Origin: an uncultured beta proteobacterium
GTDB taxonomy: Bacteria > Pseudomonadota > Gammaproteobacteria > Burkholderiales > Burkholderiaceae_C
Length of the DNA: 64,000 bases
Direction of reading: 5' to 3'
Assembly (NCBI GenBank): GCA_903960915.1
Contig: CAJCCO010000103.1
Span: 1-64,000, forward strand
In this document: piece by piece, positions 49,970 to 64,000 of the stretch
How the letters are laid out: each line of letters starts with the position of its first letter
How positions within the stretch are numbered: position 1 is the stretch's first letter
Notes under the pieces: model-generated
Seen by the model: only the letters and a program-made list of their open reading frames with translations
What the model was told of the DNA's origin: nothing
Database searches by the model: none
Translations under genes and position numbers: made by a program

Positions 49970-51181
49970 ATGTCTGAAAAAATTAGGGTAGAAAATCTGT
50001 GCAAGGTTTTTGGGCCAGACCCCGAATTGGCCATGCGCCTGCTCCAGTCCGGGCTAGACAAGGACGCTATTTTTCAGCAAACGGGCATGGTGGTGGGTGT
50101 CAACCATGCCAACTTCCATGTCAACGAAGGCGAAATATTTGTTTTGATGGGATTGTCGGGTTCTGGCAAGTCCACATTGATTCGCTTGCTTAACCGTTTG
50201 GTGGAGCCCACCCATGGCCAAATTTTGTTGGGCGGGCATGACGTTGCAAGCCTGAGCAATAAAGCACTGGTTGAATTGCGCCGAAAAGACATGGCGATGG
50301 TTTTCCAGTCGTTTGCTTTGCTGCCGCATCTCTCTGTTTTAGACAACACAGCTTTCGGTTTGGAGGTGGCTGGTGTGGGTCGTCAAGCGCGTGAAAAAAG
50401 GGCCATGGAGGTACTGGCGCAAGTGGGGTTGCAAGACTATGCACGCCGGTTGCCCAGCGAACTCTCTGGCGGCATGCAACAGCGTGTGGGTTTGGCCCGT
50501 GCGCTGGCCGTAGACCCTACGTTGATGCTGATGGATGAAGCCTTCTCTGCGCTAGATCCGCTCATGCGCAAAGAGATGCAGGACTTGCTGCTGCACTTGC
50601 AAAGTGAGCAGCGGCGCACCATTGTTTTTGTCTCCCACGATTTGGAAGAAGCCTTCCATATTGGCGACCGCATAGCCATCATGCACGGGGGCTCCATAGT
50701 TCAAATTGGTACGCCCAATGAGATTCTGCGAAACCCCAGCAATGCCTATGTCAAGGCCTTCTTCAAAGGGGTGGACGTCAACAAATACCTGCTAGCCAGC
50801 GACATCGTCACCCGCAACGAGACGCTAGAAATTCGCACCACAGCGGACCTTCGTGCTGATTTTTCAGGTGCGGTCGAACAACTCAAGGCACACCAAAAAC
50901 ACCACGCCTGCGTAGTCAATGAAGCCGGTCAATGGGTAGGTATGGTGTCGGTCGAATCCATGCTGCACAGCCTGGAGGCGCCCTCGGTCAGTTTGCCGGC
51001 AGCCCTGCTTGTTGGGGTCGAACCGGTGGTCGGCCATATCAGCCTCAAGGAGGTGATGCGTTGCCTGGTCAAAACCAACTTGCCCTTGCCGGTCGTCGAT
51101 GCTGCAGGCTACTACATGGGGACAATTAGCCAGCAGGTGCTGTTAAGAAAAATGGTCGAAGAGGAGAATAACCATGGGTGA
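49970..51181 (+). CDS. Glycine betaine/choline ABC transporter ATPase (ProV/OpuAA/ChoV type)
   Basis: A 403-residue ABC ATPase with the long ProV-type N-terminal helix (residues 14-50). Walker A GLSGSGKST is at 61-69, signature LSGGMQQR near 165 and Walker B LMLMDEAFSALDP near 185. Two CBS domains follow (residues about 270-400), which in OpuA sense ionic strength or nucleotides. GGGAGAGG lies just before the ATG. It overlaps the permease gene by 8 nt. No binding protein lies beside it; the best candidate is ChoX at 60994, so choline or betaine is the likely cargo. Confidence 0.9.
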   Translation: MSEKIRVENLCKVFGPDPELAMRLLQSGLDKDAIFQQTGMVVGVNHANFHVNEGEIFVLMGLSGSGKSTLIRLLNRLVEPTHGQILLGGHDVASLSNKALVELRRKDMAMVFQSFALLPHLSVLDNTAFGLEVAGVGRQAREKRAMEVLAQVGLQDYARRLPSELSGGMQQRVGLARALAVDPTLMLMDEAFSALDPLMRKEMQDLLLHLQSEQRRTIVFVSHDLEEAFHIGDRIAIMHGGSIVQIGTPNEILRNPSNAYVKAFFKGVDVNKYLLASDIVTRNETLEIRTTADLRADFSGAVEQLKAHQKHHACVVNEAGQWVGMVSVESMLHSLEAPSVSLPAALLVGVEPVVGHISLKEVMRCLVKTNLPLPVVDAAGYYMGTISQQVLLRKMVEEENNHG

Positions 51182-52049
51182 ACGGCTCGCACTTGGCCAA
51201 TGGGTCGACCAGGCGGTCAACTTTGTGATTCAGAACGATGGCGGTAGCCTGGAGCGTTTGGGTTCTGGCATTGGCACCTTGACCGAGGGACTGGAGATAG
51301 GGCTTGGTGCCGTTCCCGTCTGGGCTGTCACCGCTGTATGGGTCGTTTTGGGCCTCTGGCGCGTGGGCTGGGCATTCGCCTTGTTCTGCTTAGCCTCCTG
51401 CCTGGTGATTCACGACATGGGTTTTTGGTCGCAAACCATGATCACCCTGGCACTGATTATTTCTGCCACATTGATCAGCCTGTTGATAGGTCTCCCCCTG
51501 GGCATTTGGGTGGCCAGAAACGACCGTGTTGCCGCACTGGTTCGGCCCACTTTGGACTTCATGCAAACCATGCCCGCATTCGTCTACCTCATTCCCGCGG
51601 CTATGTTGTTTGGTCTGGGGCGAGTGCCCGGTGTGCTGGCCACCGTTATTTTTGCGATGCCGCCCGTGGTCAGGCTGACCAGTCTGGGTATTCGCCAGGT
51701 CAACAAAGAGCAGGTTGAAGCGGGTATTACCTTTGGCTGCACGCCAGCGCAGGTGCTGTTTAAAGTGCAGATACCTGGCGCCTTGCCTTCCATCATGGCG
51801 GGTATCAACCAAACCATCATGATGTCTTTGTCGATGGTCATCATTGCCTCTATGGTAGGCGCCGGCGGTCTGGGCAATGATGTGCTGGCCAGTATCCAAC
51901 GGCTTGATATTGGCCTAGGCTTCGAATCGGGTCTGGCAGTCGTCCTGTTGGCCATCATGCTCGACCGCATCACCGAAACCTTTGGCAGCACAGTGCCCAA
52001 GCGTTCACTCAAAGACAGGTGGCGTCTACTTATACGCCCAGCCAAGTAA
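51174..52049 (+). CDS. Glycine betaine/choline ABC transporter permease (ProW/ChoW type)
   Basis: A 291-residue inner-membrane permease with an N-terminal amphipathic extension (residues 1-40) and about six hydrophobic segments. The binding-protein-dependent transport motif EAGITFGCTPAQVLFKVQIPGALPSIMAG is represented by its core EAGITFGCTPAQVLFKVQIP near residue 183. GLPLGIWVARND and MPAFVYLIPAAMLFGLGRVPG are typical of ProW. Translation is probably coupled to the ATPase gene. Confidence 0.9.
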   Translation: MGERLALGQWVDQAVNFVIQNDGGSLERLGSGIGTLTEGLEIGLGAVPVWAVTAVWVVLGLWRVGWAFALFCLASCLVIHDMGFWSQTMITLALIISATLISLLIGLPLGIWVARNDRVAALVRPTLDFMQTMPAFVYLIPAAMLFGLGRVPGVLATVIFAMPPVVRLTSLGIRQVNKEQVEAGITFGCTPAQVLFKVQIPGALPSIMAGINQTIMMSLSMVIIASMVGAGGLGNDVLASIQRLDIGLGFESGLAVVLLAIMLDRITETFGSTVPKRSLKDRWRLLIRPAK

Positions 52050-52094
52050 TGTGTGAACAGAAGACAAGCTGTGCAGACTGAGGTGGGCAAATCC

Positions 52095-52100
52095 TATAAT
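52095..52100 (+). promoter_or_regulatory. -10 element upstream of the GlxA-family regulator
   Basis: A perfect TATAAT lies 46 nt after the permease stop and about 190 nt before the regulator start. The -35 region is weak. The 240-bp gap otherwise contains no gene that I can see. Confidence 0.4.
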
Positions 52101-52289
52101 TCAGACCTAGTGGTGCAAGTGGTGCTTCAACCCTACCAAGCGCACTAGACACTCTAGACGCAGCAGACTTGGCGCTTTAAGAAAAAAATCAATTCAAGAT
52201 TGAACAAGGGTTTGATGGCAGGGGTAGGCAAATTGTCAGCACGATGCGGCATCCGAAATACGGTGAATCGGCAGACATAAATTTTCACG

Positions 52290-53318
52290 ATGGATAAAAC
52301 AGCAATGCATGCGCCTCTCAAGGATGTCAGGAAAACGGTATCGAAACATCGTTTCATCTTCCTGACCCTGCCCAACTACTCACTGATTGCCTTGTCCAGT
52401 GCTGTCGAGGTTCTGCGTATGGCCAATCGGGTGACCAAGCAGGACATCTATGAGTGGTCGCTGGCTAGCCTCGATGGCACTCCAACGCCCGCCAGCAATG
52501 GTTTGTCCATGACACCCACCTTGGCGGTGGAGAACATGGGGGCTGCCGATATTGTGTTTGTGTGCGGTGGCGTCAACGTTGAGCAGTCGGTGACACCCGA
52601 GCTGCTGCAGGTACTTAAAAGCCTGGCAAAGAAGCAAGTTCCACTGGGTGCTCTGTGCACAGGCGGCTACGCCTTAGCCAAAGCAGGTTTGCTGGATAAA
52701 TACAAAGCGGTGATTCACTGGGAAAACATGTCCGCTCTGCGTGAGCAGTTTCCCCGGGTCATATTTTCAGACCAACTGTTTGTGGTGGACCGTGACCGCT
52801 ACACCTGCTCCGGTGGAATCGCACCGCTCGATTTGATGCTGAACATCATCAAGGCCCATGTTGGACGTGATATTGCGCCCATGATTTCCGAGCAGTTCAT
52901 TCTCGATCGCATTCGCAATGACCAGGACCGACAGCACGTGCCCTTGCAAGCACGCGTTGGGCTGTTTCATGAAAACCTGATTGAGGCTGCCGCCCTGATG
53001 GAGGCCAACATTGAAGAGCCCCTGTCCTTGGACGAAATAGCGGCTTTGGTAGGCGTTTCAAGACGGCAAATTGAGCGACTTTTCAAGCGCTATGTGGGCG
53101 AGGTTCCCACCAAATACTATTTGGACATGCGCTTGCGGCGTGCGCGGGGCTTGCTGCTGCAAACGGCCATGTCCATCATGGACATCGCTGTGGCTTGTGG
53201 CTTCCAGTCACCACCCCACTTTTCCAAGTGTTACCGTAATATGTTTGGTCACACCCCCAGTGCCGAGAGACAAAACAGCCGGCGCGGCGTGTTGCAGCCA
53301 GCCAGCACGGAGCACTGA
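52290..53318 (+). CDS. GlxA-family AraC-type regulator (GbdR-like)
   Basis: A 342-residue regulator with an N-terminal DJ-1/PfpI-like ligand domain (FIFLTLPNYSLIALSSAVEVLRMAN near residue 22, core LPNYSLIALSSAVE; GALCTGGYALAKAGLL near 122) and a C-terminal pair of AraC helix-turn-helix motifs (SLDEIAALVGVSRRQIERLF and MDIAVACGFQSPPHFSKCYR, near 245-310). GbdR, CdhR and SouR, which control choline, carnitine and sarcosine catabolism in Pseudomonas, belong to this family. Position between a betaine-type importer and the corrinoid/betaine cluster supports a GbdR-like role; the ligand is inferred, not shown. Confidence 0.85.
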   Translation: MDKTAMHAPLKDVRKTVSKHRFIFLTLPNYSLIALSSAVEVLRMANRVTKQDIYEWSLASLDGTPTPASNGLSMTPTLAVENMGAADIVFVCGGVNVEQSVTPELLQVLKSLAKKQVPLGALCTGGYALAKAGLLDKYKAVIHWENMSALREQFPRVIFSDQLFVVDRDRYTCSGGIAPLDLMLNIIKAHVGRDIAPMISEQFILDRIRNDQDRQHVPLQARVGLFHENLIEAAALMEANIEEPLSLDEIAALVGVSRRQIERLFKRYVGEVPTKYYLDMRLRRARGLLLQTAMSIMDIAVACGFQSPPHFSKCYRNMFGHTPSAERQNSRRGVLQPASTEH

Positions 53319-53395
53319 ATCAGCAAGCACCCAAAGACGTGGGCTTTGGGGCTGTAACCGCATCATGAATGGCGGGCAACACGGCCCGCCCAGGT

Positions 53396-54271
53396 TTAGC
53401 GGAAGACCACCGTGCGGCTACCGTTCAGGAAGACGCGGTGTTCGATATGAAAGCGCACAGCTGCAGCCAGAGCGCGACATTCAGAGTCACGACCTGCAGC
53501 AGCCAGCTTCTCGGGGGTGTAAGTGTGGTCAACGCGCTCAACGATTTGTTCAATGATCGGGCCTTCATCCAGATCGGCCGTGACGTAATGCGCTGTGGCA
53601 CCTGTCAATTTGACGCCTCGTTCATGCGCCTGGTGGTAGGGCTTGGCGCCCTTGAAGCCGGGCAAGAAGGAGTGGTGAATATTCATGGCCCGGCCGCGTA
53701 ACTGACGGCACAGGTTGTCCGAGAGCACCTGCATGTAGCGCGCCAAAACCACCAAATCGCTGCTTGTTTCATCCACGATCTCAAGTAAACGCTGTTCTTG
53801 GGCTGCTTTTGTGTCCGGCGTGACGGGTAAATGAATGTAGGTCAGGCCATGCGACTCCACCATGCCCCGCAAATCAGGGTGGTTGGACACCACAGCCGTG
53901 ATTTCCATCTTCAGTTCACCGGTGCGGTGGCGGTAGAGCAAATCATGCAGGCAGTGGTCAAACTTGGACACCATGATCAGAACCCGTGGGTTCTTTTGAC
54001 CATCGTGAATAGCCCATTCCATCGCTTCACTCTTTGCAACTTCCAAAAATTGTTCGCGCAGCGCCTCCAGGGGGGGCGTTTTGGCCGGGTCACCGTAAAA
54101 GGAGACCCGTACAAAAAACCGGCCACTCAAAATATCGTCAAATTGCTGCATGTCAGTGATGTAGCACTGGTGCGAAGCCAGAAATCCAGACACGGCTGCA
54201 ACCGTGCCCATGCGACTGTCGCATGTGGCATTCAGGACGTAATGGGGTTTACCTTCTAGAGATATGGTCAT
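53396..54271 (-). CDS. purU: Formyltetrahydrofolate deformylase
   Basis: PurU hydrolyses 10-formyl-THF to formate and THF. The 291-residue protein has an N-terminal ACT domain (residues 8-85: NATCDSRMGTVAAVSGFL) and a C-terminal formyltransferase-like domain with VLIMVSKFDHCLHDLL near 97, NIHHSFLPGFKGAKPYHQAHERG near 195 (core NIHHSFLPGF, catalytic His) and DLDEGPIIEQ near 228 (catalytic Asp). It is divergent from the corrinoid gene cluster and convergent with the regulator gene. In this setting it would release formate from methyl groups oxidised on THF. Confidence 0.94.
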   Translation of the reverse strand: MTISLEGKPHYVLNATCDSRMGTVAAVSGFLASHQCYITDMQQFDDILSGRFFVRVSFYGDPAKTPPLEALREQFLEVAKSEAMEWAIHDGQKNPRVLIMVSKFDHCLHDLLYRHRTGELKMEITAVVSNHPDLRGMVESHGLTYIHLPVTPDTKAAQEQRLLEIVDETSSDLVVLARYMQVLSDNLCRQLRGRAMNIHHSFLPGFKGAKPYHQAHERGVKLTGATAHYVTADLDEGPIIEQIVERVDHTYTPEKLAAAGRDSECRALAAAVRFHIEHRVFLNGSRTVVFR

Positions 54272-54581
54272 TGAAATCTGGCTCCTCTTATCAGCACTGG
54301 TATTAAAGTGCGTTGTATTACTGAAACATGTCTATCCATCAATCAATCCCAGTTTAGACAGGCTTGTAGTTTAAGGTTGTCTCAAGGCGACAATTTTTAC
54401 GGTAGGGACGACTCACATAGCGCTCAAGTCATGCCGAAAATGAGCGAAAATCATGTCGTGAAGCGATAACCCTAAGTCGCTAATCTGTCAGCGATGCGAG
54501 GCATGGACCCGTACCATTTTCATCAATTCGGGACCCGGTATTTACTGGGTACCACCGTATATACCAATCGAGGAGTTAGCT
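54272..54581. promoter_or_regulatory. 310-bp divergent control region between purU and the corrinoid cluster
   Basis: No gene is visible here. Repeats present: CGCTCA (54421-54426) and TGAGCG (54441-54446) form an inverted repeat; CGAAAAT occurs twice with a 10-bp period (54435-54441 and 54445-54451); TCATGCCG (54429) and TCATGTCG (54451) form a direct repeat. GGTAT...ATACC flanks the segment just before the corrinoid gene. These are candidate binding sites for the nearby GlxA-type regulator. Confidence 0.5.
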
Positions 54582-55286
54582 GTGAGTAATGAGTTTGATG
54601 ACGACCTGGATTTGAACACCCTCAATGACGAGGAATTGACAGAGCAGGTGCATGACGACCTCTACAACGGCTTGCGCGAAGAGGTGGTGGAAGCCACCAA
54701 TATTTTGCTGGGCCGGGGCTGGACCGCTGCCCGCGTGCTGGACGATGCCTTGGTTGAAGGCATGCGCATCGTCGGCGTGGACTTCCGCGACGGCATTTTG
54801 TTTGTGCCCGAAGTGCTGCTGGCGGCCAACGCCATGAAGGGCGGCATGGAGATCCTGCGTCCGCTGCTGGCCGAAACCGGCGTCGCGCCCATTGGCAAGA
54901 TGGTCATTGGCACCGTCAAGGGTGACATCCATGACATCGGTAAAAACCTGGTAGGCATGATGATGGAAGGCGCCGGCTTTGAGGTGATCGACCTGGGCAT
55001 CAATAACCCGGTTGAAAAATACCTGGCTGCGCTGGAAGAGCACAAACCTGACATCCTGGGCTTGTCGGCCTTGCTCACCACCACCATGCCTTACATGAAA
55101 GTGGTGATCGACACGCTCAAAGAAAAAGGCCTGCGCGATGACTTCATCGTACTGGTCGGCGGCGCGCCGTTGAACGAAGAGTTTGGTAAGGCCGTTGGTG
55201 CTGACGCCTACTGCCGCGATGCCGGTATTGCGGTTGAAACAGCCAAGACGCTGATCGCTGCACGCCGCGCTGCCGCAGCGGCCTAA
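54582..55286 (+). CDS. Corrinoid (B12-binding) methyl-carrier protein, MtbC/MttC type
   Basis: A 234-residue methyl carrier. An N-terminal helical cap (B12-binding-2; residues 10-95) precedes a Rossmann B12 domain with DIHDIG at residues 115-120, where His117 is the lower cobalt ligand, SALLTTTMPYMK near 167 and VGGAPLNEEFGKAVGADAY near 200. These match MtbC/MtmC/MttC and the corrinoid proteins of glycine betaine methyltransferase systems. Translation starts at GTG 54582 after GAGGAG (54570-54575). It heads a plus-strand operon of seven genes for corrinoid-linked C1 metabolism. Confidence 0.93.
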   Translation: MSNEFDDDLDLNTLNDEELTEQVHDDLYNGLREEVVEATNILLGRGWTAARVLDDALVEGMRIVGVDFRDGILFVPEVLLAANAMKGGMEILRPLLAETGVAPIGKMVIGTVKGDIHDIGKNLVGMMMEGAGFEVIDLGINNPVEKYLAALEEHKPDILGLSALLTTTMPYMKVVIDTLKEKGLRDDFIVLVGGAPLNEEFGKAVGADAYCRDAGIAVETAKTLIAARRAAAAA

Positions 55287-55334
55287 GTGCCGCCCTAAGC
55301 TGGCACCCTTGTCTGTTTGAGGCCCTTAACAGCC

Positions 55335-55976
55335 ATGGGTGTCCAGCCAGCCTTTTTGGTCATTGCCTGTGGCGCACTCGCACGCGAAATTGTGGCGCTG
55401 CGCACCCTGAACAACTGGCCGCACATGGTGGTGCAATGCCTTCCTGCCGAGCTGCACAACCGCCCTGAGAAGATACCGGCGGCCGTTCGCGCCAAGATTC
55501 AGGCGGCACGGGACCGCTTTACTTCCATCTTTGTCGCCTATGCCGACTGCGGCACCGGTGGTCTGCTTGATGCCGTGCTTGCAGAAGAAGGCGTGGAGCG
55601 CATCCCCGGCGCCCACTGCTATGAGTTCTTTGCTGGAAGCACGCAGTTTGCCGAGCTGGCCGAAGCCGAACTCGGCACCTTTTACCTGACAGACTTTTTG
55701 CTGAAGCACTTTGAGCGTCTCATCATTCACGGATTGGGGATTGATAAGCACCCAGAGCTGCTCCCCATGTACTTTGGCCATTACAAAAAGTTGACCTACC
55801 TGGCACAAGTGCCATCGGAAGAAAAGATGGCCGCCGGACGTGCGGCGGCACAGCGATTGAACCTTTCATTTGAAACCCACGTGACCGGCTATGGCGAACT
55901 CGCCACCAGCCTGGCGCGTGCCCACGCTACGGCGAAACCGACCATGACAGAGAGCATCATTCAATGGCAAAGCTGA
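55335..55976 (+). CDS. DUF1638 family protein
   Basis: A 213-residue soluble protein. VQPAFLVIACGALAREIVAL opens the domain, LPAELHNRPEKIP and FVAYADCGTGGLLDAVLAEEGVERIPGAHCYEFFAG, with conserved Cys, Asp and His residues near positions 78-100, follow. DUF1638 is widespread beside corrinoid methyltransferase genes, notably in methylotrophic methanogens, but its role is unknown. The conserved C...H...C pattern suggests metal or corrinoid handling (inference). The ATG at 55335 is preferred over a TTG at 55317. It overlaps the next gene by 13 nt. Confidence 0.83.
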   Translation: MGVQPAFLVIACGALAREIVALRTLNNWPHMVVQCLPAELHNRPEKIPAAVRAKIQAARDRFTSIFVAYADCGTGGLLDAVLAEEGVERIPGAHCYEFFAGSTQFAELAEAELGTFYLTDFLLKHFERLIIHGLGIDKHPELLPMYFGHYKKLTYLAQVPSEEKMAAGRAAAQRLNLSFETHVTGYGELATSLARAHATAKPTMTESIIQWQS

Positions 55977-56308
55977 TCGTAATTTCTTGGCGCGATATCC
56001 CCGCGCAAGTGGTAGTAAAGAAGGGTCGCGAGACTGGCAAGGTACAGCTCTCGCACCGGTTCCAGGAAGCGGTTGACCGCGCCGCCATGCGGGCTGGCAA
56101 GTCTGGCTCGGCCGATTATCTGGCCGACTGGAAGCGCAGTGAGCCACGTGCCTGTTCTGATGACATGCAAGCCGAAGCCGATGCCGAAGCGCAAAAAATT
56201 GAAGCCCAGTACTCGGACGAAGACCTGTTGCGCCTTATCCGTGCCCATGGTTTTGAGCCCACGGCTGACAATGCCGAGGCGGCTCCTCCAGCGACAGGAG
56301 AGCTCTGA
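55964..56308 (+). CDS. 'Virulence factor' family small protein in corrinoid operon
   Basis: A 114-residue protein beginning MAKLIVISWRDIPAQVVVKKG, the mark of a small family that databases call 'virulence factor' without functional evidence. VDRAAMRAGKSGSADYLADWKR in the middle and an acidic C-terminal half complete it. It overlaps DUF1638 by 13 nt and the MetV-like gene by 1 nt, so translation is coupled. The context indicates a part in methyl-group transfer or oxidation rather than virulence; the function is unknown. Confidence 0.8.
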   Translation: MAKLIVISWRDIPAQVVVKKGRETGKVQLSHRFQEAVDRAAMRAGKSGSADYLADWKRSEPRACSDDMQAEADAEAQKIEAQYSDEDLLRLIRAHGFEPTADNAEAAPPATGEL

Positions 56309-56781
56309 TGTACAGCGTGCGTCGTTGGTCGGTGCGTCATGCGCGCGGCATGGAAATTTTTTACCAAGGCTTCGAGCGAGTCTTTGTTGCCCTTCATCCC
56401 CTATGGAAAGCCATTGGCTACCAGCGTCTTGAAAAACCAGTGGCTGCAGTGGAACAAGTGGTCAAAGGTTTTTTGTTTGACTGCCAGATGTGTGGTCAGT
56501 GCGCCCTGAGTTCCACCGGTATGTCGTGTTCCATGAACTGTCCTAAAACCATTCGCAACGGCCCGTGTGGCGGTGTGCGGGCTAACGGTCACTGCGAGGT
56601 CAAACCCGAGATGCGCTGCGTCTGGGTGGAGGGCTACGCGGGCAGCCAGCGCATGCGTGAAGGTCGTGCGGCCATTCAGGTCGTTCAGTTTGCTGTGGAT
56701 GCACGTCTTAAGGGCCGCTCATCCTGGCTCAAGGTCGCCCAAGAAAAGTCGCCCCCTGAAGCAACGGAGAAAAAAGCATGA
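56308..56781 (+). CDS. MetV-like methylene-THF reductase partner (MTHFR_C, Cys-rich)
   Basis: A 157-residue protein of the 'methylene-tetrahydrofolate reductase C-terminal' family. Eight cysteines at 59, 62, 65, 74, 78, 87, 96 and 104 lie in CQMCGQCALSSTGMSC, NCPKTIRNGPCGG and later residues, a pattern suited to an iron-sulfur cluster or zinc. In acetogens the equivalent protein MetV forms a complex with MetF. Here the stop overlaps the metF start by 4 nt, so the two are almost certainly made as a complex. Confidence 0.83.
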   Translation: MYSVRRWSVRHARGMEIFYQGFERVFVALHPLWKAIGYQRLEKPVAAVEQVVKGFLFDCQMCGQCALSSTGMSCSMNCPKTIRNGPCGGVRANGHCEVKPEMRCVWVEGYAGSQRMREGRAAIQVVQFAVDARLKGRSSWLKVAQEKSPPEATEKKA

Positions 56782-57818
56782 AGTTCGACGACGAACCCGT
56801 TCCGGGCTACCCCTTACCCATCTTGCCCGGCCACACCTCACCGGGTCGCCTGGAGCGGGTGCTGCGCAGCGGCGCATTTGCAATTACGGCTGAGCTGGAG
56901 CCGCCCGATTCGGCTGACCCCAGCGAGGTGTACCGCCGTGCCCGGGTGTTTGATGGCTACGTCGATGCCATCAACGCCACCGATGGCAGCGGTGCCAACT
57001 GCCACATGTCCAGCCTGGCCGTGTGTGCGCTGTTGACCCGTGTGGGGTACGCGCCGGTCATGCAAATTTCCTGCCGCGACAAAAACCGCATTGCCATCCA
57101 GGGCGACATTCTGGGCGGTGCCGCCATGGGCGTGTGCAATATTTTGTGTTTGAGTGGTGATGGCGTGCAAAGTGGCGACCACCCGCAAGCCAAGCCAGTG
57201 TTTGACCTGGACTGCATGTCCTTGCTTGAGATCGGTCGGGATATGCGTGACGCTCACCGCTTCCAAAGCGGGCGCAAGGTCACCTTTGCACCCCGCGTTT
57301 TTTTCGGCGCTGCTGCCAACCCCTTTGTTCAGCCGTTCGACTGGCGCGCCCAGCGCTTGGCCAAAAAAGTCGCCGCTGGTGCCCAATTCATACAGACCCA
57401 GTACTGCTACGACGTGCCTCGCCTGCGCCAATACATGAAAGAAGTAGAAGACCTGGGCTTGCTGGACAAGGTCTACATCCTGGTGGGCGTAGGCCCCATG
57501 CGCTCGGCTAAGGTGGCCGACTGGATGCGCACCAACGTGCCCGGCGTTCATATTCCCGATGCAGTCATCAAGCGCATGGCCGGGGCTGAAAAACCCGCGC
57601 TGGAAGGGCGCAAGATTTGCACTGAAATCATTCAGGAAGTCAAAGACATCAAAGGCGTAGCCGGTGTGCACATCATGGCCTACCGCCAAGAAGACGCGGT
57701 GCCTGAAATTGTGACGAACTCAGGCGTTTTGCAGGGCCGTGTGCCGTGGTATCCGGGCCGTGATGGCGCTGCGCCTGAACTGCTGCACATACCGGCCCCG
57801 GTGGCCCAGCCGGCCTGA
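56778..57818 (+). CDS. metF: Methylenetetrahydrofolate reductase
   Basis: A 346-residue TIM-barrel FAD enzyme. ITAELEPPDSADPSEVYRRA holds the catalytic Glu, DAINATDGSGANCHMSSLAVC and VMQISCRDKNRIAIQGDILGGAAMGVCNILCLSGD, represented by cores QISCRDKNR and NILCLSGDG, form the FAD and folate sites, and GAQFIQTQYCYD near residue 207 is the family substrate motif. The form paired with MetV is the branch used in acetogens. In this context it probably runs backwards, oxidising methyl-THF to methylene-THF. Confidence 0.9.
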   Translation: MKFDDEPVPGYPLPILPGHTSPGRLERVLRSGAFAITAELEPPDSADPSEVYRRARVFDGYVDAINATDGSGANCHMSSLAVCALLTRVGYAPVMQISCRDKNRIAIQGDILGGAAMGVCNILCLSGDGVQSGDHPQAKPVFDLDCMSLLEIGRDMRDAHRFQSGRKVTFAPRVFFGAAANPFVQPFDWRAQRLAKKVAAGAQFIQTQYCYDVPRLRQYMKEVEDLGLLDKVYILVGVGPMRSAKVADWMRTNVPGVHIPDAVIKRMAGAEKPALEGRKICTEIIQEVKDIKGVAGVHIMAYRQEDAVPEIVTNSGVLQGRVPWYPGRDGAAPELLHIPAPVAQPA

Positions 57819-57884
57819 AGTCGCTGACGCAACCCTCCATATTCTCCCCATACCCCTCTAATTTTTAAATCACAAGGATATAAC

Positions 57885-58799
57885 GTGACCGATACCATCA
57901 TCAGCTCTGCTACCAAAGAAATTGTGATCGGCTTTGACCGTCCTTTCGTCATCATTGGTGAGCGTATCAACCCCACGGGCCGCAAGATCATGGCCGCTGA
58001 AATGATGGCCGGCGACTACAGCCGCGTCATTGCCGATGCCCTGGCCCAAGTCGAGGCCGGAGCGCACATGTTGGACGTCAATGCAGGCATACCGCTGGCC
58101 GACGAGCCCGGCATGCTGGCCAAGGCCATCCAGTTGGTCCAAGCTGTGACAGACGTGCCCCTGTCGATCGACTCCTCCATCGTGGCCGCTCTGGAGGCTG
58201 GCCTGGCTGTCTACAAGGGCAAAGCCCTGGTCAACTCAGTCACCGGCGAAGAGGATCGTTTGGAAACCGTCTTGCCGCTGGTTAAAAAATACGGCGCAGC
58301 TGTGGTGGCCATCTCTAACGATGAAACCGGTATTTCTCAAGACCCGGATGTCCGCTTTGCCGTTGCCAAGAAAATTGTGGAGCGTGCGTCTGACTACGGC
58401 ATTCCTGCCTGCGACATCGTGGTCGACCCGCTGGTCATGCCCATTGGCGCCATCAACCAGGCCGGCGTGCAAGTCATGCGACTGGTGCACCGCTTGCGCA
58501 CCGAGCTGAAAGTCAACACCACCTGCGGTGCCTCCAACGTCAGCTTTGGCTTGCCAGAGCGTAACGGCATCAACGCGGGTTTCCTCACCATGGCCATTGC
58601 TTCGGGCATGACCTCGGCCATCACCAACCCCTTGCATGCTGAAGTGGTCAAGGCCTGTATGGCGGCTGATGTGATGATGGGACATGACCCCGACTGCATG
58701 CGCTGGATCCGCAAATTCCGTGAGGCGCCCACCATGGGTGCCGATGGCGAAATGGGTCGTGGCCGCCGTGAAACCGGTAGCAGAAGGCGTCGTGATTGA
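57885..58799 (+). CDS. Methyltetrahydrofolate:corrinoid methyltransferase (MtgA/AcsE-like)
   Basis: A 304-residue pterin-binding TIM-barrel protein. VIIGERINPTGRKIMA near residue 25, GAHMLDVNAGIPLADEPGML near 63, PLSIDSSIVAALEAGL near 92, LVNSVTGEEDRL near 115 and NTTCGASNVSFGLPER near 213 match methyl-THF:corrinoid/cobalamin methyltransferases. It would move the methyl group from the methyl-corrinoid protein to THF. Starts at GTG 57885 after AAGGA (57873-57877). MtgA of the Desulfitobacterium glycine betaine system has this role. Confidence 0.9.
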   Translation: MTDTIISSATKEIVIGFDRPFVIIGERINPTGRKIMAAEMMAGDYSRVIADALAQVEAGAHMLDVNAGIPLADEPGMLAKAIQLVQAVTDVPLSIDSSIVAALEAGLAVYKGKALVNSVTGEEDRLETVLPLVKKYGAAVVAISNDETGISQDPDVRFAVAKKIVERASDYGIPACDIVVDPLVMPIGAINQAGVQVMRLVHRLRTELKVNTTCGASNVSFGLPERNGINAGFLTMAIASGMTSAITNPLHAEVVKACMAADVMMGHDPDCMRWIRKFREAPTMGADGEMGRGRRETGSRRRRD

Positions 58800-58848
58800 G
58801 CTGTATTTTTGCCCCTTTCTTCTTTGACTTGTCTGGAACCAACTGTAA

Positions 58849-60879
58849 ATGAGTAACAAAGACGCCCTGGTAGTCTTCACCCCATCGGGCCGACGTGGTC
58901 GTTTTCCTGTGGGCACACCGGTGCTGCAAGCCGCCCGCTCTCTGGGTGTTGACATTGACTCTGTCTGTGGAGGGCGCGGCATTTGCGGGCGCTGCCAGGT
59001 GTTGCTCTCTGAAGGCGAGTTTGCCAAACACGGGTTGGTCTCACGCGCAGAAAATTTGTCTTCTCAAAGCCCGGTTGAGAAGGAATATTGCACCACCCAG
59101 ACCCTGGCCGACGGCCGGCGACTGTCTTGCTCGGTGCAGGTCTTGGGTGACGTGGTGATTGACGTGCCCTCAAGCAGCCAGGTGCACAAGCAAGTGGTGC
59201 GCAAGGAAGCAGAAGCGCACGACGTAGAGCTAGACCCGCTCATTCGCCTGCACTTTGTGGAAGTGCAAGAGCCCGATATGCACGACCCTTCGGGTGATCT
59301 GCGGCGACTCGAAGACGCCCTGGAATTTGAGTGGCGCCTGACCGACCTGGCCTGCGATGTGATTGTGTTGCAACAAATCCAGGTTGCATTGCGCGCGGGC
59401 AACTGGAAAGTCACCGTGGCAGTGCACGCCGGCAGGCAAATAGTAGCCGTCTGGCCTGGGTTCAAGGAACGTGTCTTTGGCCTGGCGGTGGACATAGGCT
59501 CCACCACCATCGCCGCCCATTTGTGCGATCTTGCCTCGGGCGAAGTCGTGGCCTCTGCAGGCATCATGAATCCACAAATCCGCTTTGGCGAAGATTTGAT
59601 GAGCCGCGTCTCCTACGTCATGATGAACCCGGGCGGCGAAATAGAGATGACCGCAGTCGTGCGCGCCGCCCTCAATGAGCTGGCCGATGATGTGGCCCGC
59701 CAGGTGGGCATCACGCCGCAAGACATACTGGAAGCCACCTTTGTGGGCAATCCCATCATGCACCACCTGCTGCTCGGGATTAACCCAGTGGAGCTGGGCG
59801 GTGCACCGTTTGCATTGGCCACTGACAAGGCCATCACCCTATGGGCTGTCGAGATCGACTTCGCTATTCACCGCAACGCGCGTATCTATGTGCTGCCGTG
59901 CATTGCCGGCCACGTTGGGGCGGATACCGCAGGCGTCATCCTGGCAGAGCGCCCAGACCTGACCGACAAGATCACCTTGCTGGTGGACGTGGGCACCAAT
60001 GCCGAGATCGTGCTGGGTAACAACCAGCGCCTGCTGGCTTGTTCCAGCCCCACCGGTCCCGCGTTTGAAGGTGCGCAAATCAGCTGCGGCCAGCGCGCTG
60101 CACCGGGTGCCATTGAGCGCGTGCGGGTAGACCCCGTCACGCTGGAGCCGCGCTTCAAGGTCATTGGTTGTGAGTTGTGGTCAGATGACCCCGGCTTTGC
60201 CGATGCCGTGGCGGGCAGTGGCGTAACCGGGGTGTGCGGCTCCGGCATTATTGAAGTGCTGGCCGAAATGTATTTGGCCGGCATCATTCGCCATGACGGC
60301 GTCATTCGGGGCGAACTCTCCGAGCGCAATCCACGCATCCAACCCGATGGCCGAACCTTCTCCTACGAGCTGTACCCGGCCACGGCTAACGCGCCCGCAC
60401 TCAAAATCATGCAAAACGATGTGCGTGCCATTCAGCTTGGCAAAGCTGCCTTGTATGCCGGCGTGCGCTTGCTGATGGAGCGCATGGGGGTGCGCCAGGT
60501 TGAACGCATCCGGCTCGCGGGTGCTTTTGGCAGCCACATCGACGTGAAATACGCCATGGTGCTGGGCATGATTCCAGACTGCACCTTGTCCGGCGTCAGC
60601 TCCGCCGGCAATGCCGCCGGTACCGGCGCCCGCATTGCCTTGCTGGACCAGCGCTCACGGCGCGACATTGAAGCCCTGGTGCGTCGCGTGGAGAAGATTG
60701 AGACTGCGGTGGAGCCTCGTTTCCAGGAGTTTTTTGTTGAGGCCATGGCCATTCCGCACCTCACCGACCCGTTTGTAGAACTTCAAAAAGAGGTCACGCT
60801 GCCAGCGCGGGTGGAAATCGTTAACGATAACGCCCCAAGGAGTCGCCGTGGACCGCGCCGTGAGCCTAGCAGCGCGTAA
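58849..60879 (+). CDS. Reductive activator of corrinoid protein (RACo-like, ASKHA/DUF4445)
   Basis: A 676-residue iron-sulfur ATPase. The N-terminal 2Fe-2S domain has cysteines 40, 46 and 49 in CGGRGICGRC and Cys94 in RLSCSVQV. The ASKHA part starts with GLAVDIGSTTIAAHL near residue 210 and continues with the phosphate loops LLVDVGTNAEIVLG and GVCGSGIIE. RACo and RamA use ATP to reduce inactive Co(II) corrinoid back to Co(I). It lies 49 nt after the methyltransferase and completes the methyl-transfer unit. Confidence 0.9.
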   Translation: MSNKDALVVFTPSGRRGRFPVGTPVLQAARSLGVDIDSVCGGRGICGRCQVLLSEGEFAKHGLVSRAENLSSQSPVEKEYCTTQTLADGRRLSCSVQVLGDVVIDVPSSSQVHKQVVRKEAEAHDVELDPLIRLHFVEVQEPDMHDPSGDLRRLEDALEFEWRLTDLACDVIVLQQIQVALRAGNWKVTVAVHAGRQIVAVWPGFKERVFGLAVDIGSTTIAAHLCDLASGEVVASAGIMNPQIRFGEDLMSRVSYVMMNPGGEIEMTAVVRAALNELADDVARQVGITPQDILEATFVGNPIMHHLLLGINPVELGGAPFALATDKAITLWAVEIDFAIHRNARIYVLPCIAGHVGADTAGVILAERPDLTDKITLLVDVGTNAEIVLGNNQRLLACSSPTGPAFEGAQISCGQRAAPGAIERVRVDPVTLEPRFKVIGCELWSDDPGFADAVAGSGVTGVCGSGIIEVLAEMYLAGIIRHDGVIRGELSERNPRIQPDGRTFSYELYPATANAPALKIMQNDVRAIQLGKAALYAGVRLLMERMGVRQVERIRLAGAFGSHIDVKYAMVLGMIPDCTLSGVSSAGNAAGTGARIALLDQRSRRDIEALVRRVEKIETAVEPRFQEFFVEAMAIPHLTDPFVELQKEVTLPARVEIVNDNAPRSRRGPRREPSSA

Positions 60880-60993
60880 GCCAACCACGCTTGAATTAGA
60901 GATTAAACTGAACCGGTCGCCCTGTTTTGTTATTTCAACAAGATGCAGGGATGACAAGTACCAATGCATACCAACAAGCCTCAAGGAGTCAGC

Positions 60994-61935
60994 ATGAAAC
61001 CTCTGTTTATCGTCGCCCTATTAGCCGCAGTGTCAGCCCTCGGTTCGCAGCAAGCCCTGGCTGAGGATGCCAGTTGCAAGACGGTGCGTTTTGCGGATGT
61101 GGGCTGGAGTGACATTGCCGCCACCACCGGACTGGCTTCGGTGGTGCTTGAGGGCTTGGGCTACAAAACCAATGTCACCATGGCCTCTATTCCAATTGCC
61201 TTTGCCGGCATGAAGAAAAAGCAGATTGATGTGTTCCTGGGCTACTGGAACCCCTCCATGACACCGCAGATTGAACCCTTCGTCAAAGCCGGTGACATCA
61301 AGGTGCTCGACACCCCTAACCTCGTTGGCGCCAAGTACACGCTGGCCGTGCCAACCTACCTCTATGACAAGGGCCTCAAAACCTTTGCTGATATTGCCAA
61401 GTTCGAAAAAGACCTGCAGGGCAAAATTCACGGCATTGAGCCCGGTAACGACGGCAATGCCCTGATCGCCGGCATGATCAAGGACAACAAGTTTGGCCTG
61501 AAGAGCTTCAAAATGGTCGAATCCTCTGAAGCAGGCATGCTGGTCGAGGCGCAGCGCGCCATTCGGGGCCAGAAGGCCATCGTCTTCTTGGGCTGGGAGC
61601 CTCACCCTATGAACGTGCAGATGAAAATGAGCTACTTGCAAGGGGGCGATGACGTGTTTGGCCCCAACCTGGGCGAAGCCAAGGTCTACACCGCCATTCC
61701 TCCCTCGTACGAGGCCAAGTGCCCCAACGTCGTGGCCTTGCTGAAAAATTTGCAATTCACCACCGACATCGAGAACCAGGTGATGGGCCCGATTCTGGCC
61801 AAGACAAAACCCAACGTCGCTGCGCGTGATTTCCTGAAGAAAAATCCGGCTGTTCTGGACAAATGGCTCAAAGGCGTGAAGAGTTTTTCGGGCAAAGACG
61901 GACTTCCTGAAGTTAAAGCTGCCCTGAAAATTTAA
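60994..61935 (+). CDS. choX: Choline-binding ABC transporter protein
   Basis: A 313-residue periplasmic binding protein with a signal peptide (residues 1-23, ending ALAED). The quaternary-amine cage of Sinorhizobium ChoX (Trp43, Trp90, Tyr119, Trp205 and Asp45) aligns with Trp38, Trp85, Tyr115, Trp201 and Asp40 here, and GIEPGNDGN and VFLGWEPHPMN are shared, so choline is the likely ligand. AAGGAG precedes the ATG at 60994. No ATPase or permease gene adjoins it; the ProV/ProW pair at 49970-52049 is the natural partner. Confidence 0.88.
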   Translation: MKPLFIVALLAAVSALGSQQALAEDASCKTVRFADVGWSDIAATTGLASVVLEGLGYKTNVTMASIPIAFAGMKKKQIDVFLGYWNPSMTPQIEPFVKAGDIKVLDTPNLVGAKYTLAVPTYLYDKGLKTFADIAKFEKDLQGKIHGIEPGNDGNALIAGMIKDNKFGLKSFKMVESSEAGMLVEAQRAIRGQKAIVFLGWEPHPMNVQMKMSYLQGGDDVFGPNLGEAKVYTAIPPSYEAKCPNVVALLKNLQFTTDIENQVMGPILAKTKPNVAARDFLKKNPAVLDKWLKGVKSFSGKDGLPEVKAALKI

Positions 61936-61991
61936 CGCAGCCCTGCTCAGCAGTCAGCAGGCTTCCCGCCTGTCCCTGCACACCCTGGCAC

Positions 61992-62030
61992 ATGACAGCG
62001 GCTCAACCCAGTTGAGCCGCTGTCATTTGT
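61992..62030 (+). terminator. 16-bp perfect hairpin between choX and betB
   Basis: ATGACAGCGGCTCAAC (61992-62007) pairs perfectly with GTTGAGCCGCTGTCAT (62011-62026) around a 3-nt loop and is followed by TTGT. The stem is very stable but the U-run is short, so it may terminate partially and set choX mRNA above betB-betA, as is usual for binding-protein genes. Confidence 0.75.
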
Positions 62031-62066
62031 AGATAAAGCAGGTATTGAAATTCGATGGAAAAATTT

Positions 62067-63524
62067 ATGAATGCTCAGATCATCTCCAGCTTTGTTGACG
62101 GCCACCTTGTGCAAGGCGGTGGCGACAGCTTTGATTCAGTCAACCCGGCCACGGGGCTGGCGTTTGCCACCGTGCACGATGCCAACCAGGCGGATGTGGA
62201 TGCCGCAGTCGCCGCAGCCCAGCGCGGGTTTGAGGTTTGGTCTGCAATGACCGGTACCGAGCGTGGCCGCATTCTGAACCGCGCGGTGCAACTGCTTCGT
62301 TCCCGCAATGAAGAACTTGCTGCGTTGGAGGTGCAAGACTGTGGCAAACCGCTGCAAGAAGCCCTGGTGGTGGATGTGCAAAGTGGGGCTGACTGCATTG
62401 AATATTTTGCCGGTGCAGCGGCCACCTTGGCGGGCGCGCAATACCCGCTGAAAAATGCCTTTGCCTATACCCGGCGTGAACCGCTGGGCGTGTGCGTGGG
62501 CATTGGCGCCTGGAACTACCCCCTGCAGATTGCCTGCTGGAAATCAGCCCCTGCGCTGGCCGCTGGCAATGCCATGATTTTCAAGCCCTCCGAACTCACC
62601 CCGGCCACGGCCGTGAAGCTGGCCGAAATTTACCTCGAAGCCGGTGTGCCCCCGGGCGTCTTCAACGTGCTCCAGGGCAGGGGCGCCACCGGCGCCATGC
62701 TGGCAGCGCATCCTGGGGTGGCCAAGGTGTCGGTCACCGGCTCGGTGCCCACGGGCAAAAAGGTCATGCAAACGGCGGCAGGTACCTTGAAGCGCATCAC
62801 GATGGAGCTGGGCGGTAAATCACCGCTCCTCGTGTTTGACGATGCCGACCTCGAGCAGGCCGTATCGGCCGCCATGATGGGCAATTTCTACACCCAAGGC
62901 GAGGTCTGCACCAACTGTACGCGGGTCTTTGTGCAGCGCGGTTTGCATGACCGTTTTCTGGCGCGCCTCAAGGAGCGCACGGCCTGGCTGCGTGTGGGCA
63001 ACCCGATGGACCCCGAAACCGAAGTTGGCGCCCTCATCTCCGCGGACCATCTGCACAAGGTCATGGGCTACATTGACAGCGGCGTGGCCGAAGGCGCCAC
63101 TTTGGCCCAAGGTGGGCATGTTGTAAACGTGCCAGGGCAGGGCGGCTACTTTGTGGCGCCCACCATCTTTTCCGACTGCCAGGACGACATGCGCATCGTG
63201 CGTGAAGAGATTTTCGGCCCCGTGTTATCGCTGCTGGTGTTTGACGACGAAGCAGAGGCCGTGGCCCGCGCCAACAACACCCGATTTGGCCTGGCCGCAG
63301 GCGTTTTCACCCGCGACAATGCGCGCGCGCACCGGGTGGCTGCCAAGCTGAAAGCCGGTATTTGCTGGATCAACAACTACAACATCACCCCGATTGAAAT
63401 GCCATTTGGTGGTGCCGGTGAGTCGGGCATTGGCCATGAAAACAGCATGGCCGCGTTTGAGCACTACACGCAGCTGAAAACCATTTATGTGGAGCTGGGC
63501 GAAGTGGCCTGCAGCTACCGCTGA
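62067..63524 (+). CDS. betB: Betaine aldehyde dehydrogenase
   Basis: NAD(P)-dependent oxidation of betaine aldehyde to glycine betaine. The aldehyde dehydrogenase core shows [22 protein letters not shown] with the catalytic-region Asn (about residue 150), MELGGKSP with the general-base Glu and [11 protein letters not shown] with the nucleophilic Cys (about residue 281). BetB-type features include [17 protein letters not shown] and the end [18 protein letters not shown]. The ATG at 62067 has GGAA upstream; an in-frame ATG at 62055 is the alternative. betA follows 39 nt downstream. Confidence 0.92.
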
Positions 63525-63563
63525 CTATTGTTTCTCCCTCGAGTTTCCCCTGGACCGACCGAC

Positions 63564-64000
63564 ATGAAATCTGAAGAATTTGACTACATCATTGTGGGCG
63601 CTGGCTCGGCCGGTTGCGTGCTGGCCAACCGGCTGACGGAAGACAAAGACATTCGAGTCTTGCTGCTTGAAGCGGGTGGGCGCGACAACAGCATTTTTAT
63701 CCACATGCCCTCGGCGCTGTCTTACCCGATGGCGGATAAAAATTACACCTGGCTGTATGAGTCGGAGCCCGAGCCGCACATGAACAACCGGCGTATCCAT
63801 TGCCCGCGTGGCCGAGTCCTGGGGGGGTCGTCTTCTATCAACGGCATGGTCTACATACGTGGCAACGCCCTTGATTACGACGGCTGGGCCGCAGCCCCCG
63901 GCATGCGTGACTGGTCGTATGCCGACTGCCTGCCGTACTTCCAAAAATCGGAAACCCGCGCCCAGGGTGGTGACCGCTACCGTGGCGATGCCGGCCCACT
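63564..64000 (+). CDS. betA: Choline dehydrogenase (5' part; runs off the window)
   Basis: A GMC-family flavoprotein that oxidises choline to betaine aldehyde at the membrane. About 145 codons are visible: [17 protein letters not shown] is the FAD dinucleotide fold, LLLEAGG the second strand, and [19 protein letters not shown] the GMC signature. With betB upstream it supplies glycine betaine for the corrinoid route. The 3' end is outside the window. Confidence 0.92.

What the first reader, a model, noticed from the sequence alone, without database searches (positions are those of the whole stretch)
49970..64000. Choline-to-formate route built around a corrinoid methyl carrier in a respiring betaproteobacterium
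The sequence shows, in about 14 kb, choline/betaine import genes, a GbdR-like regulator, purU, a B12-binding methyl carrier, methyl-THF:corrinoid methyltransferase, MetF with a MetV-like partner, a corrinoid activator, choX, betB and betA. Corrinoid-dependent betaine demethylation (MtgB/MtgA systems) is established in anaerobes such as Desulfitobacterium, while Pseudomonas-type aerobes use the oxygen-dependent Rieske enzyme GbcAB. The same genome region carries a full sdh/TCA block. I infer a complete methyl-oxidation route: betaine to methyl-corrinoid to methyl-THF to methylene-THF to formyl-THF to formate.
Basis: partly seen in the sequence, partly recalled or inferred. Interest (0 to 1): 0.85.

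Follow-up and report, generated by a model that had tools for sequence, protein, structure and literature searches.

The report
B12-dependent choline-to-formate gene cluster
A Comamonadaceae-like bacterium carries genes to strip a methyl group from betaine with vitamin B12 instead of oxygen, and probably to make methionine with the same B12 protein; the same kind of system was published in 2025 for marine bacteria, so this is a well-preserved new member rather than a new kind.

Summary
Window 49970-64000 encodes choline/betaine import, a GbdR-like regulator, PurU, a corrinoid methyl carrier (MtgC), DUF1638, PF13769, a MetV-like protein, MetF2, methyl-THF:corrinoid methyltransferase (MtgD), a RACo-type activator, ChoX, BetB and BetA. 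Four candidates (MttB family) lie on other contigs. MttB1 sits beside folD, serine dehydratase and sarcosine oxidase genes. Of 24 genomes searched, its ortholog is in 10 of 11 with MtgC (this one included) and 0 of 13 without a close MtgC. No GbcA passes its cut-off. The route betaine to formate is genetically complete.

A small PF13769 protein of unknown role comes next after DUF1638 among the genes queried in 46 of 46 loci with room that have it. Verdict: new member of a known kind.

The parts
49970..51181 (+). choV/proV-type ATPase of a choline/betaine ABC importer
   Evidence: TIGR01186 417 bits over cut-off 326.6, ProV model 440 of 444; first ATG at 49970
51174..52049 (+). choW permease
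   Evidence: TIGR03416 333 bits, cut-off 363
52290..53318 (+). GbdR-like AraC-family regulator
   Evidence: NF052371 418 bits, cut-off 480; PF12833 and PF01965
53396..54271 (-). purU, formyl-THF deformylase
   Evidence: TIGR00655 318 bits over cut-off 286
54582..55286 (+). mtgC, corrinoid methyl carrier
   Evidence: PF02310 93 bits, PF02607 59 bits; DxHxxG motif at residue 115; 82.6% identical over residues 22-222 to a Sinorhizobium meliloti pSymB protein
55335..55976 (+). DUF1638 protein, possible corrinoid reactivation factor
   Evidence: PF07796 96 bits; invariant C12, C72, C95 in the 42 sequences aligned; in Phaeobacter important for methionine synthesis (PMC5764234, passages)
55964..56308 (+). 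PF13769 small protein ('Virulence factor' by name only), role unknown
   Evidence: PF13769 90 bits; next after DUF1638 among queried genes in 46 of 46 loci with room that have it, within 200 bases in 41
56308..56781 (+). MetV-like cysteine-rich protein (8 Cys)
   Evidence: PF12225 87 bits; Cys count
56778..57818 (+). metF2, methylene-THF reductase-like, predicted to run as methyl-THF oxidase
   Evidence: PF02219 113 bits; a second, higher-scoring MetF at C117
57885..58799 (+). mtgD, methyl-corrinoid:THF methyltransferase
   Evidence: NF005719 366 bits over cut-off 259; PF00809
58849..60879 (+). RACo/RamA-like reductive activator of corrinoid proteins
   Evidence: PF14574, PF17651, PF17650, Fer2; 2Fe-2S-type Cys motif at residue 40
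60964..61935 (+). choX, choline-binding protein
   Evidence: TIGR03414 450 bits over cut-off 379
62055..63524 (+). betB, betaine-aldehyde dehydrogenase
   Evidence: NF009725 769 bits over cut-off 593
63528..64000 (+). betA, choline dehydrogenase (first part; continues to C103:65234)
   Evidence: NF002550 260 bits on the 157-aa part, under the full-length cut-off of 605; full 568-aa frame in L017

Best explanation
This is the carrier and C1-oxidation half of an MtgBCD-type, B12-dependent glycine betaine demethylation pathway, joined to choline uptake and choline oxidation. Choline enters through ChoXWV and BetA/BetB make glycine betaine (established family functions). An MttB-family enzyme coded elsewhere, most likely MttB1 on contig C109, moves one methyl group from betaine to cob(I)alamin on MtgC and releases dimethylglycine. 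MtgD moves the methyl group to THF. MetF2 with the MetV-like protein oxidises methyl-THF to methylene-THF. FolD and PurU take it to formate. RACo and DUF1638, perhaps with PF13769, re-reduce cobalamin that falls to Co(II). Dimethylglycine and sarcosine are handled by a dimethylglycine-dehydrogenase-like protein, an OYE-type flavoenzyme and sarcosine oxidase coded beside the MttB genes. The same MtgC and MtgD, run in reverse with the Bmt/MtgE protein coded 2.3 kb past the window, probably form the cell's main methionine synthase. Shown here: gene content, order, linkage and search-level absences. Inferred: substrate, direction, and both functions.
For: All cluster genes identified by family models. 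Four MttB genes in the genome. MttB1 is 83% identical to an Azoarcus plasmid protein that lies next to folD and within 8 kb of choX, betA and betB, and 68% to the Sinorhizobium MttB beside mtgC. Its best PDB match is 4yyc, 790 bits, and it matches 9yce, named glycine betaine methyltransferase, at 424 bits. Of 24 genomes, MttB1 orthologs are in 10 of 11 with MtgC (this genome and nine others at 87-92%) and 0 of 13 without a close MtgC; any MttB in 11 of 11 and 0 of 13 (Fisher p 4e-7). A second folD is divergent from MttB1, with serine dehydratase and sarcosine oxidase genes beside it. No GbcA over cut-off: best 53 bits against 670. Only one PF02574 gene, the cluster's bmt. The other three PF02310 proteins are two mutases and a radical-SAM protein, so no MetH carrier was found. 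Published genetics for the same enzyme set: mtgC and mtgD mutants of Ruegeria lose betaine growth and methionine synthesis (PMC12478193, results read).
Against: MtgB is not in the window, and which of the four MttB paralogs acts on betaine is inferred from neighbours and orthology only. The MttB1 neighbourhood also includes an oligopeptide-type ABC importer, which does not point to betaine. A core-MetE-like gene is present, in pieces at contig ends C62 and C9. MesX, which an enzyme of the MesD type would need, was not found, but that search's control was silent. So methionine may not depend on MtgCDE. Four of eight MtgC-bearing genomes of the genus also show a MetH-type protein, so the dual role is not general. 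The genome is a 146-contig assembly, 98.8% complete; absences are not proof, and the GbcA search had no positive control over cut-off. No shared regulatory motif was found between the cluster and the MttB loci. No formate dehydrogenase, Fhs or terminal oxidase was searched for.
Confidence: 0.8

Rival explanations
1. The carrier module is mainly a split methionine synthase (MtgC, MtgD, Bmt/MtgE with RACo and DUF1638), and the choline genes serve osmoprotection, not catabolism.
For: No MetH carrier found and the only PF02574 gene is in this cluster. In Phaeobacter the same five gene kinds make methionine (PMC5764234, passages).
Against: Four MttB genes, a MetF2 beside a second MetF, MetV, PurU, a second FolD, dimethylglycine and sarcosine enzymes and a GbdR-like regulator are not explained by methionine alone. 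MttB presence matches MtgC presence in all 24 genomes searched. Four of the eight MtgC-bearing genomes of the genus show MetH and still carry MtgC.
Confidence: 0.08
2. The main methyl donor is another quaternary amine (proline betaine, carnitine, gamma-butyrobetaine or similar), fed to one shared MtgC by MttB1-4; glycine betaine is minor.
For: Four MttB paralogs, 27-55% identical to each other, in different neighbourhoods; MttB1 and MttB4 lie beside oligopeptide-type ABC importers (by eye). PMC12478193 (discussion) describes several MttB-type enzymes sharing one MtgC.
Against: The carrier itself is coded between choline import, GbdR-like, BetA and BetB genes. In Azoarcus the MttB1 ortholog lies near choX, betA and betB. 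MttB1 is the paralog type most often near mtgC: 21 of 30 MttB hits, over the 24 of 40 loci with room that have any.
Confidence: 0.09
3. Betaine is demethylated by an oxygen-dependent Rieske enzyme, and the corrinoid cluster has another duty.
For: Six Rieske-domain proteins in the genome; one on C61 (379 aa) matches the GbcA model weakly.
Against: Best GbcA score is 53 bits against a cut-off of 670; the next, on C43, is 25 bits.
Confidence: 0.03

Closest known systems
MtgBCD(E) of Ruegeria pomeroyi (PMC12478193, 2025), with the pSymB genes of Sinorhizobium meliloti
   Same: PF06253 MtgB, PF02310 MtgC, PF00809 MtgD, PF02574 MtgE, MetF2, RamA-like activator, DUF1638; no MetH found here. S. meliloti strain Ak57 has bmt, mttB, mtgC, DUF1638, PF13769, metV-like, metF, mtgD and an ASKHA activator within about 18 kb, with other genes between.
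   Different: Here the carrier genes sit inside a choline gene group with GbdR-like and PurU, and the mttB genes are on other contigs. The host is Comamonadaceae-like; the words Betaproteobacteria, Azoarcus, freshwater, PurU and MetV do not occur in that paper's main text.
Plasmid pAZKH of Azoarcus sp. KH32C (annotated record; no paper seen)
   Same: choV-choW-gbdR-purU-mtgC-DUF1638-PF13769-metV-metF-mtgD-RACo in the same order; folD next to mttB; choX, betA and betB near it.
   Different: On a plasmid; the binding-protein gene after RACo is only 26% identical to ChoX here, while a 63% one lies beside mttB. Genes annotated as ETF parts and ETF-ubiquinone oxidoreductase lie close by.
Desulfitobacterium hafniense MtgABC (anaerobe)
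   Same: MttB-family betaine enzyme and corrinoid carrier feeding THF (as described in PMC12478193).
   Different: MtgC here scores 173-206 bits against cut-offs 310-370 of the two NCBIfam glycine-betaine MtgC models. The second methyltransferase there is MtgA, said to lack sequence identity with known structures (PMC7154762, abstract start in listing).
Chloromethane (cmu) pathway of Methylobacterium extorquens CM4
   Same: Aerobe; methyl-corrinoid to methyl-THF, with metF2, folD and purU on the same plasmid (PMC3621897, passages).
   Different: Donor is chloromethane through the two-domain CmuA; no MttB, RACo or DUF1638 named in the passages seen.
GbcAB of Pseudomonas
   Same: Same substrate; GbdR is its regulator there (recalled).
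   Different: Oxygen-dependent (stated in PMC12478193 as a monooxygenase); no GbcA over cut-off here.

Membership tests
Aerobic MtgBCD(E) betaine demethylase / split methionine synthase | Stand-alone corrinoid carrier with cobalamin-ligand motif | tested here: met
   234 aa, PF02607 and PF02310, DIHDIG
Aerobic MtgBCD(E) betaine demethylase / split methionine synthase | PF00809 methyl-THF methyltransferase (MtgD) | tested here: met
   NF005719 366 bits over cut-off
Aerobic MtgBCD(E) betaine demethylase / split methionine synthase | PF06253 MtgB in the same genome | tested here: met
   Four genes on other contigs, none in the window
Aerobic MtgBCD(E) betaine demethylase / split methionine synthase | RamA/RACo-like activator and DUF1638 | tested here: met
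Aerobic MtgBCD(E) betaine demethylase / split methionine synthase | MtgE (PF02574) and no classical MetH (usual, not universal) | tested here: met
   One PF02574 gene, in this cluster; no MetH carrier. But 4 of 8 MtgC-bearing genus members show MetH-type proteins
Aerobic MtgBCD(E) betaine demethylase / split methionine synthase | MtgC phylogeny in the roseobacter-type clade | not tested
   No tree built; 82.6% identity to S. meliloti
Aerobic MtgBCD(E) betaine demethylase / split methionine synthase | Mutant loses growth on betaine and methionine prototrophy | not testable with these tools
   Shown for Ruegeria (PMC12478193)
Desulfitobacterium-type MtgABC | MtgC over a curated glycine-betaine MtgC cut-off | tested here: not met
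   206 of 370 and 173 of 310 bits
Desulfitobacterium-type MtgABC | MtgA-type second methyltransferase | tested here: inconclusive
   The gene here is PF00809, 366 bits to NF005719; no MtgA model was run
GbcAB betaine monooxygenase | GbcA over the NF058607 cut-off | tested here: not met
   Best 53 bits against 670; no positive control among the 14

The most novel reading that the evidence does not exclude
The small PF13769 protein, filed in Pfam as 'Virulence factor', is an unrecognised core part of aerobic corrinoid methyl-transfer machines, most likely a partner of DUF1638 and RACo in loading or re-reducing the cobalamin of MtgC. In addition, Betaproteobacteria that carry the whole set can demethylate betaine without oxygen, so choline could be respired with nitrate, and some of them have given up MetH because MtgCDE makes their methionine.
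Probability: 0.3. Interest if true: 0.55.

Novelty: new member of a known kind. Interest (0 to 1): 0.42.

Why it matters
Glycine betaine and choline are abundant methylated nutrients. Before the 2025 Ruegeria work, aerobic bacteria were thought to open betaine with an oxygenase (GbcAB) or Bhmt. This locus extends the B12-dependent route to Comamonadaceae-like bacteria with a complete, readable choline-to-formate gene set, ties B12 supply to betaine use there, and predicts that some strains depend on the same carrier for methionine. It also makes two poorly understood families, DUF1638 and PF13769, directly testable.

Tried and rejected
Rejected: (a) my greedy ORF caller gave a 342-aa plus-strand frame beside MttB1 (L018:8472-9500) with no family match; it is antisense to folD2. 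I dropped that query and the mutase query from the counts. (b) Fold matches for the AlphaFold models of PF13769 (pLDDT 86) and DUF1638 (pLDDT 91): no PDB match at E 0.001 or better. The alignments used 46 of 64 and 41 of 72 relatives found, plus the window protein. (c) A shared regulatory motif between cluster and MttB promoters: shared 9-mers in pairs of regions, no gapped 5+5 motif in three or more; I take these as chance. (d) No Rfam family at gathering score in 49-64 kb. (e) Sigma-70-like sites in 52.0-54.7 kb: one found against 2.2 expected. (f) Viral-contig scans, E. coli genomes and the phage collection were not used. (g) I built no MttB or MtgC tree; identities and neighbours were used instead.

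MetH-type proteins are inferred from 31-39% identity of MtgC to a stretch inside frames of 523 aa or more; I did not scan them one by one. Counts from those calls were made by hand from the printed rows. The genus and family of this genome were not classified formally; 'Comamonadaceae-like' rests on the names of the nearest contigs.


Full report
What is there. The window is bases 1-64000 of contig C103 of a 3.72-Mb, 146-contig assembly, 98.8% complete. The closest carrier genes are in assemblies titled Comamonadaceae, Rhodoferax, Comamonas and Hydrogenophaga. From mtgC to metF2 the genes overlap or nearly touch, and mtgD and RACo follow within 66 and 49 bases, which looks like one transcript. 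purU is divergent from mtgC across 310 bases. Beyond the window the contig continues with the rest of betA, a 360-aa frame without Pfam or NCBIfam match, and a 362-aa betaine--homocysteine methyltransferase-type gene (NF005718 488 bits over cut-off 338), 2.3 kb past the window end.

The missing enzyme. No PF06253 methyltransferase is in the window. The genome has four. MttB1 on C109 stands divergent to a second folD, with serine dehydratase and sarcosine oxidase alpha and beta genes behind it. MttB2 on C106 is next to an OYE-type flavoenzyme, which I call DgcA-like by recall; that pairing recurs at 66-90% identity in 6 of 7 other loci of this type and weakly (35%) in the seventh. MttB3 on C61 is next to a dimethylglycine-dehydrogenase-like protein (FAD domain plus GcvT-type folate domain) and sarcosine oxidase genes. 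MttB4 on C141 is distant, 27-29% identical to the others. Against solved structures MttB1 scores 790 bits to 4yyc and 424 bits to 9yce, named glycine betaine methyltransferase.

Linkage test. I searched 24 chosen genomes for MttB1: 11 that carry a close MtgC (in one, G112, only a fragment is seen) and 13 that do not (three of these, G061, G161 and G163, have a distant carrier-like protein of 36-41% identity). MttB1 orthologs were in 10 of 11 (this genome, and nine others at 87-92% identity) and in 0 of 13. Any MttB was in 11 of 11 and 0 of 13 (Fisher p 4e-7). The one MtgC-bearing genome without an MttB1 ortholog (G177) is 80% complete and shows an MttB fragment. The genomes are related, so the p value overstates independence.

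Synteny. Of these 53, DUF1638 is found in 51, mtgD in 47, PF13769 in 46, RACo in 46, metV and metF2 in 28 each, and all six in 26. Of 40 loci with room on both sides, 24 have an MttB gene and 19 a GbdR-like gene, 10 a sarcosine or dimethylglycine gene, 8 a choline ABC part, 7 bmt, 6 bet genes and 4 purU. So the choline dress around the carrier is not the rule; among the loci seen it is most complete in the Comamonadaceae contigs L026 and L028. On the Azoarcus KH32C plasmid the order choV to RACo is the same, and the MttB1 ortholog there lies next to folD and within 8 kb of choX, betA and betB, with an ETF-ubiquinone oxidoreductase gene nearby. S. meliloti Ak57 pSymB has bmt, mttB, mtgC, DUF1638, PF13769, metV-like, metF, mtgD and the ASKHA activator within about 18 kb, other genes between.

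GbcA. Six Rieske-domain proteins exist. The GbcA model gives at most 53 bits against a cut-off of 670. The search rang weakly on other Rieske proteins, so it was sensitive, but none of its 14 control genomes passed the cut-off, so there is no positive control.

Methionine. The genome has one PF02574 gene, the cluster's bmt, and four PF02310 proteins: MtgC, two mutases and one radical-SAM protein. In 120 genomes of the family, MetH-type hits occur in 113 and close MtgC in 4 (G000, G040, G082, G112); three of those four lack a MetH-type hit, two of them below 80% complete. In 60 of the genus, MetH-type hits occur in 46 and close MtgC in 8, and 4 of the 8 lack MetH. Taking distinct genomes at least 90% complete and at most 5% contaminated, MetH is missing in 2 of 4 with MtgC and in 2 of 132 without (Fisher p 0.004; related genomes, few events). 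The genus sample alone is not significant (p 0.08). PMC12478193 reports that 108 of 156 marine genomes with MtgBCD lack MetH. A core-MetE-like gene is also present. If it is of the MesD type it would need MesX (PMC7857596, passages), which was not found, but the control was silent.

How it works. Shown by sequence: presence, order and linkage. From established family knowledge: ChoXWV, BetAB, PurU, FolD, RACo. From the Ruegeria work (abstract, introduction, results and discussion read): MtgC and MtgD are needed for betaine growth and methionine synthesis. Inferred: MttB1 as betaine enzyme, MetF2-MetV running oxidatively, and MtgC with two outputs. MetF2-MetV resembles acetogen MetVF (listing); its electron acceptor here is unknown. 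The step methyl-THF to formate through MetF2, FolD and PurU has an aerobic precedent in chloromethane use (PMC3621897, passages). Ruegeria uses Fhs for the last step instead (PMC4744692, passages); Fhs was not searched here.

Unknown parts. DUF1638 has three invariant cysteines in the 42 sequences aligned and a confident model without a significant PDB match. In the 46 loci with room that have PF13769, it comes next after DUF1638 among the genes queried in 46 of 46, within 200 bases in 41 and 0.9-3.0 kb away in 5; metV follows in 27 and mtgD in 17. It tracks RACo (present in 44 of 46 loci with PF13769 and 2 of 7 without, p 1e-4) better than metV (27 of 46 and 1 of 7, p 0.04). Its model, too, has no significant PDB match. 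No paper in the library holds 'PF13769'. The one paper found with both DUF1638 and cobalamin is the Ruegeria paper; PMC5764234 also discusses DUF1638.

Literature. The listings show no title or abstract start that reports this pathway in Betaproteobacteria. Supplementary tables were not readable, and the library holds only open-licence papers, so that absence is weak.

Noticed in passing
window 55964-56308: A PF13769 'Virulence factor' gene that comes next after DUF1638 in the mtgC loci where both were found; its Pfam name is misleading here.
   Followed up: partly
L018:3-1685 (C109): A hydantoinase/oxoprolinase gene downstream of the sarcosine oxidase genes near MttB1; a similar annotation lies near betB on the Azoarcus plasmid (L136:17461-19476). 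Perhaps N-methylhydantoin or creatinine use feeding sarcosine.
   Followed up: no
L108:2-988 minus and L109:1459-1989 minus (C62 start, C9 end): A core-MetE-like gene (PF01717) read in two pieces at two contig ends, without a MesX partner found.
   Followed up: partly
L020:4443-8894 (C61): Genes that look by eye like histidinol-dehydrogenase, DegT-type aminotransferase, D-cysteine-desulfhydrase and racemase families beside MttB3; possibly a betaine-type amino acid pathway.
   Followed up: no
window 61992-62026: A perfect inverted repeat with 16-base arms and a 3-base loop between choX and betB, terminator-like, suggesting that betBA is a separate transcript.
   Followed up: partly
L024:11369-17120 (C96): A type I CRISPR-Cas locus (Cas3-like and Cas7 by Pfam) near a Rieske oxygenase gene.
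   Followed up: partly
L017:2200-3282: A 360-aa protein between betA and bmt with no Pfam or NCBIfam match; a 66% identical match lies after betA in L030.
   Followed up: partly
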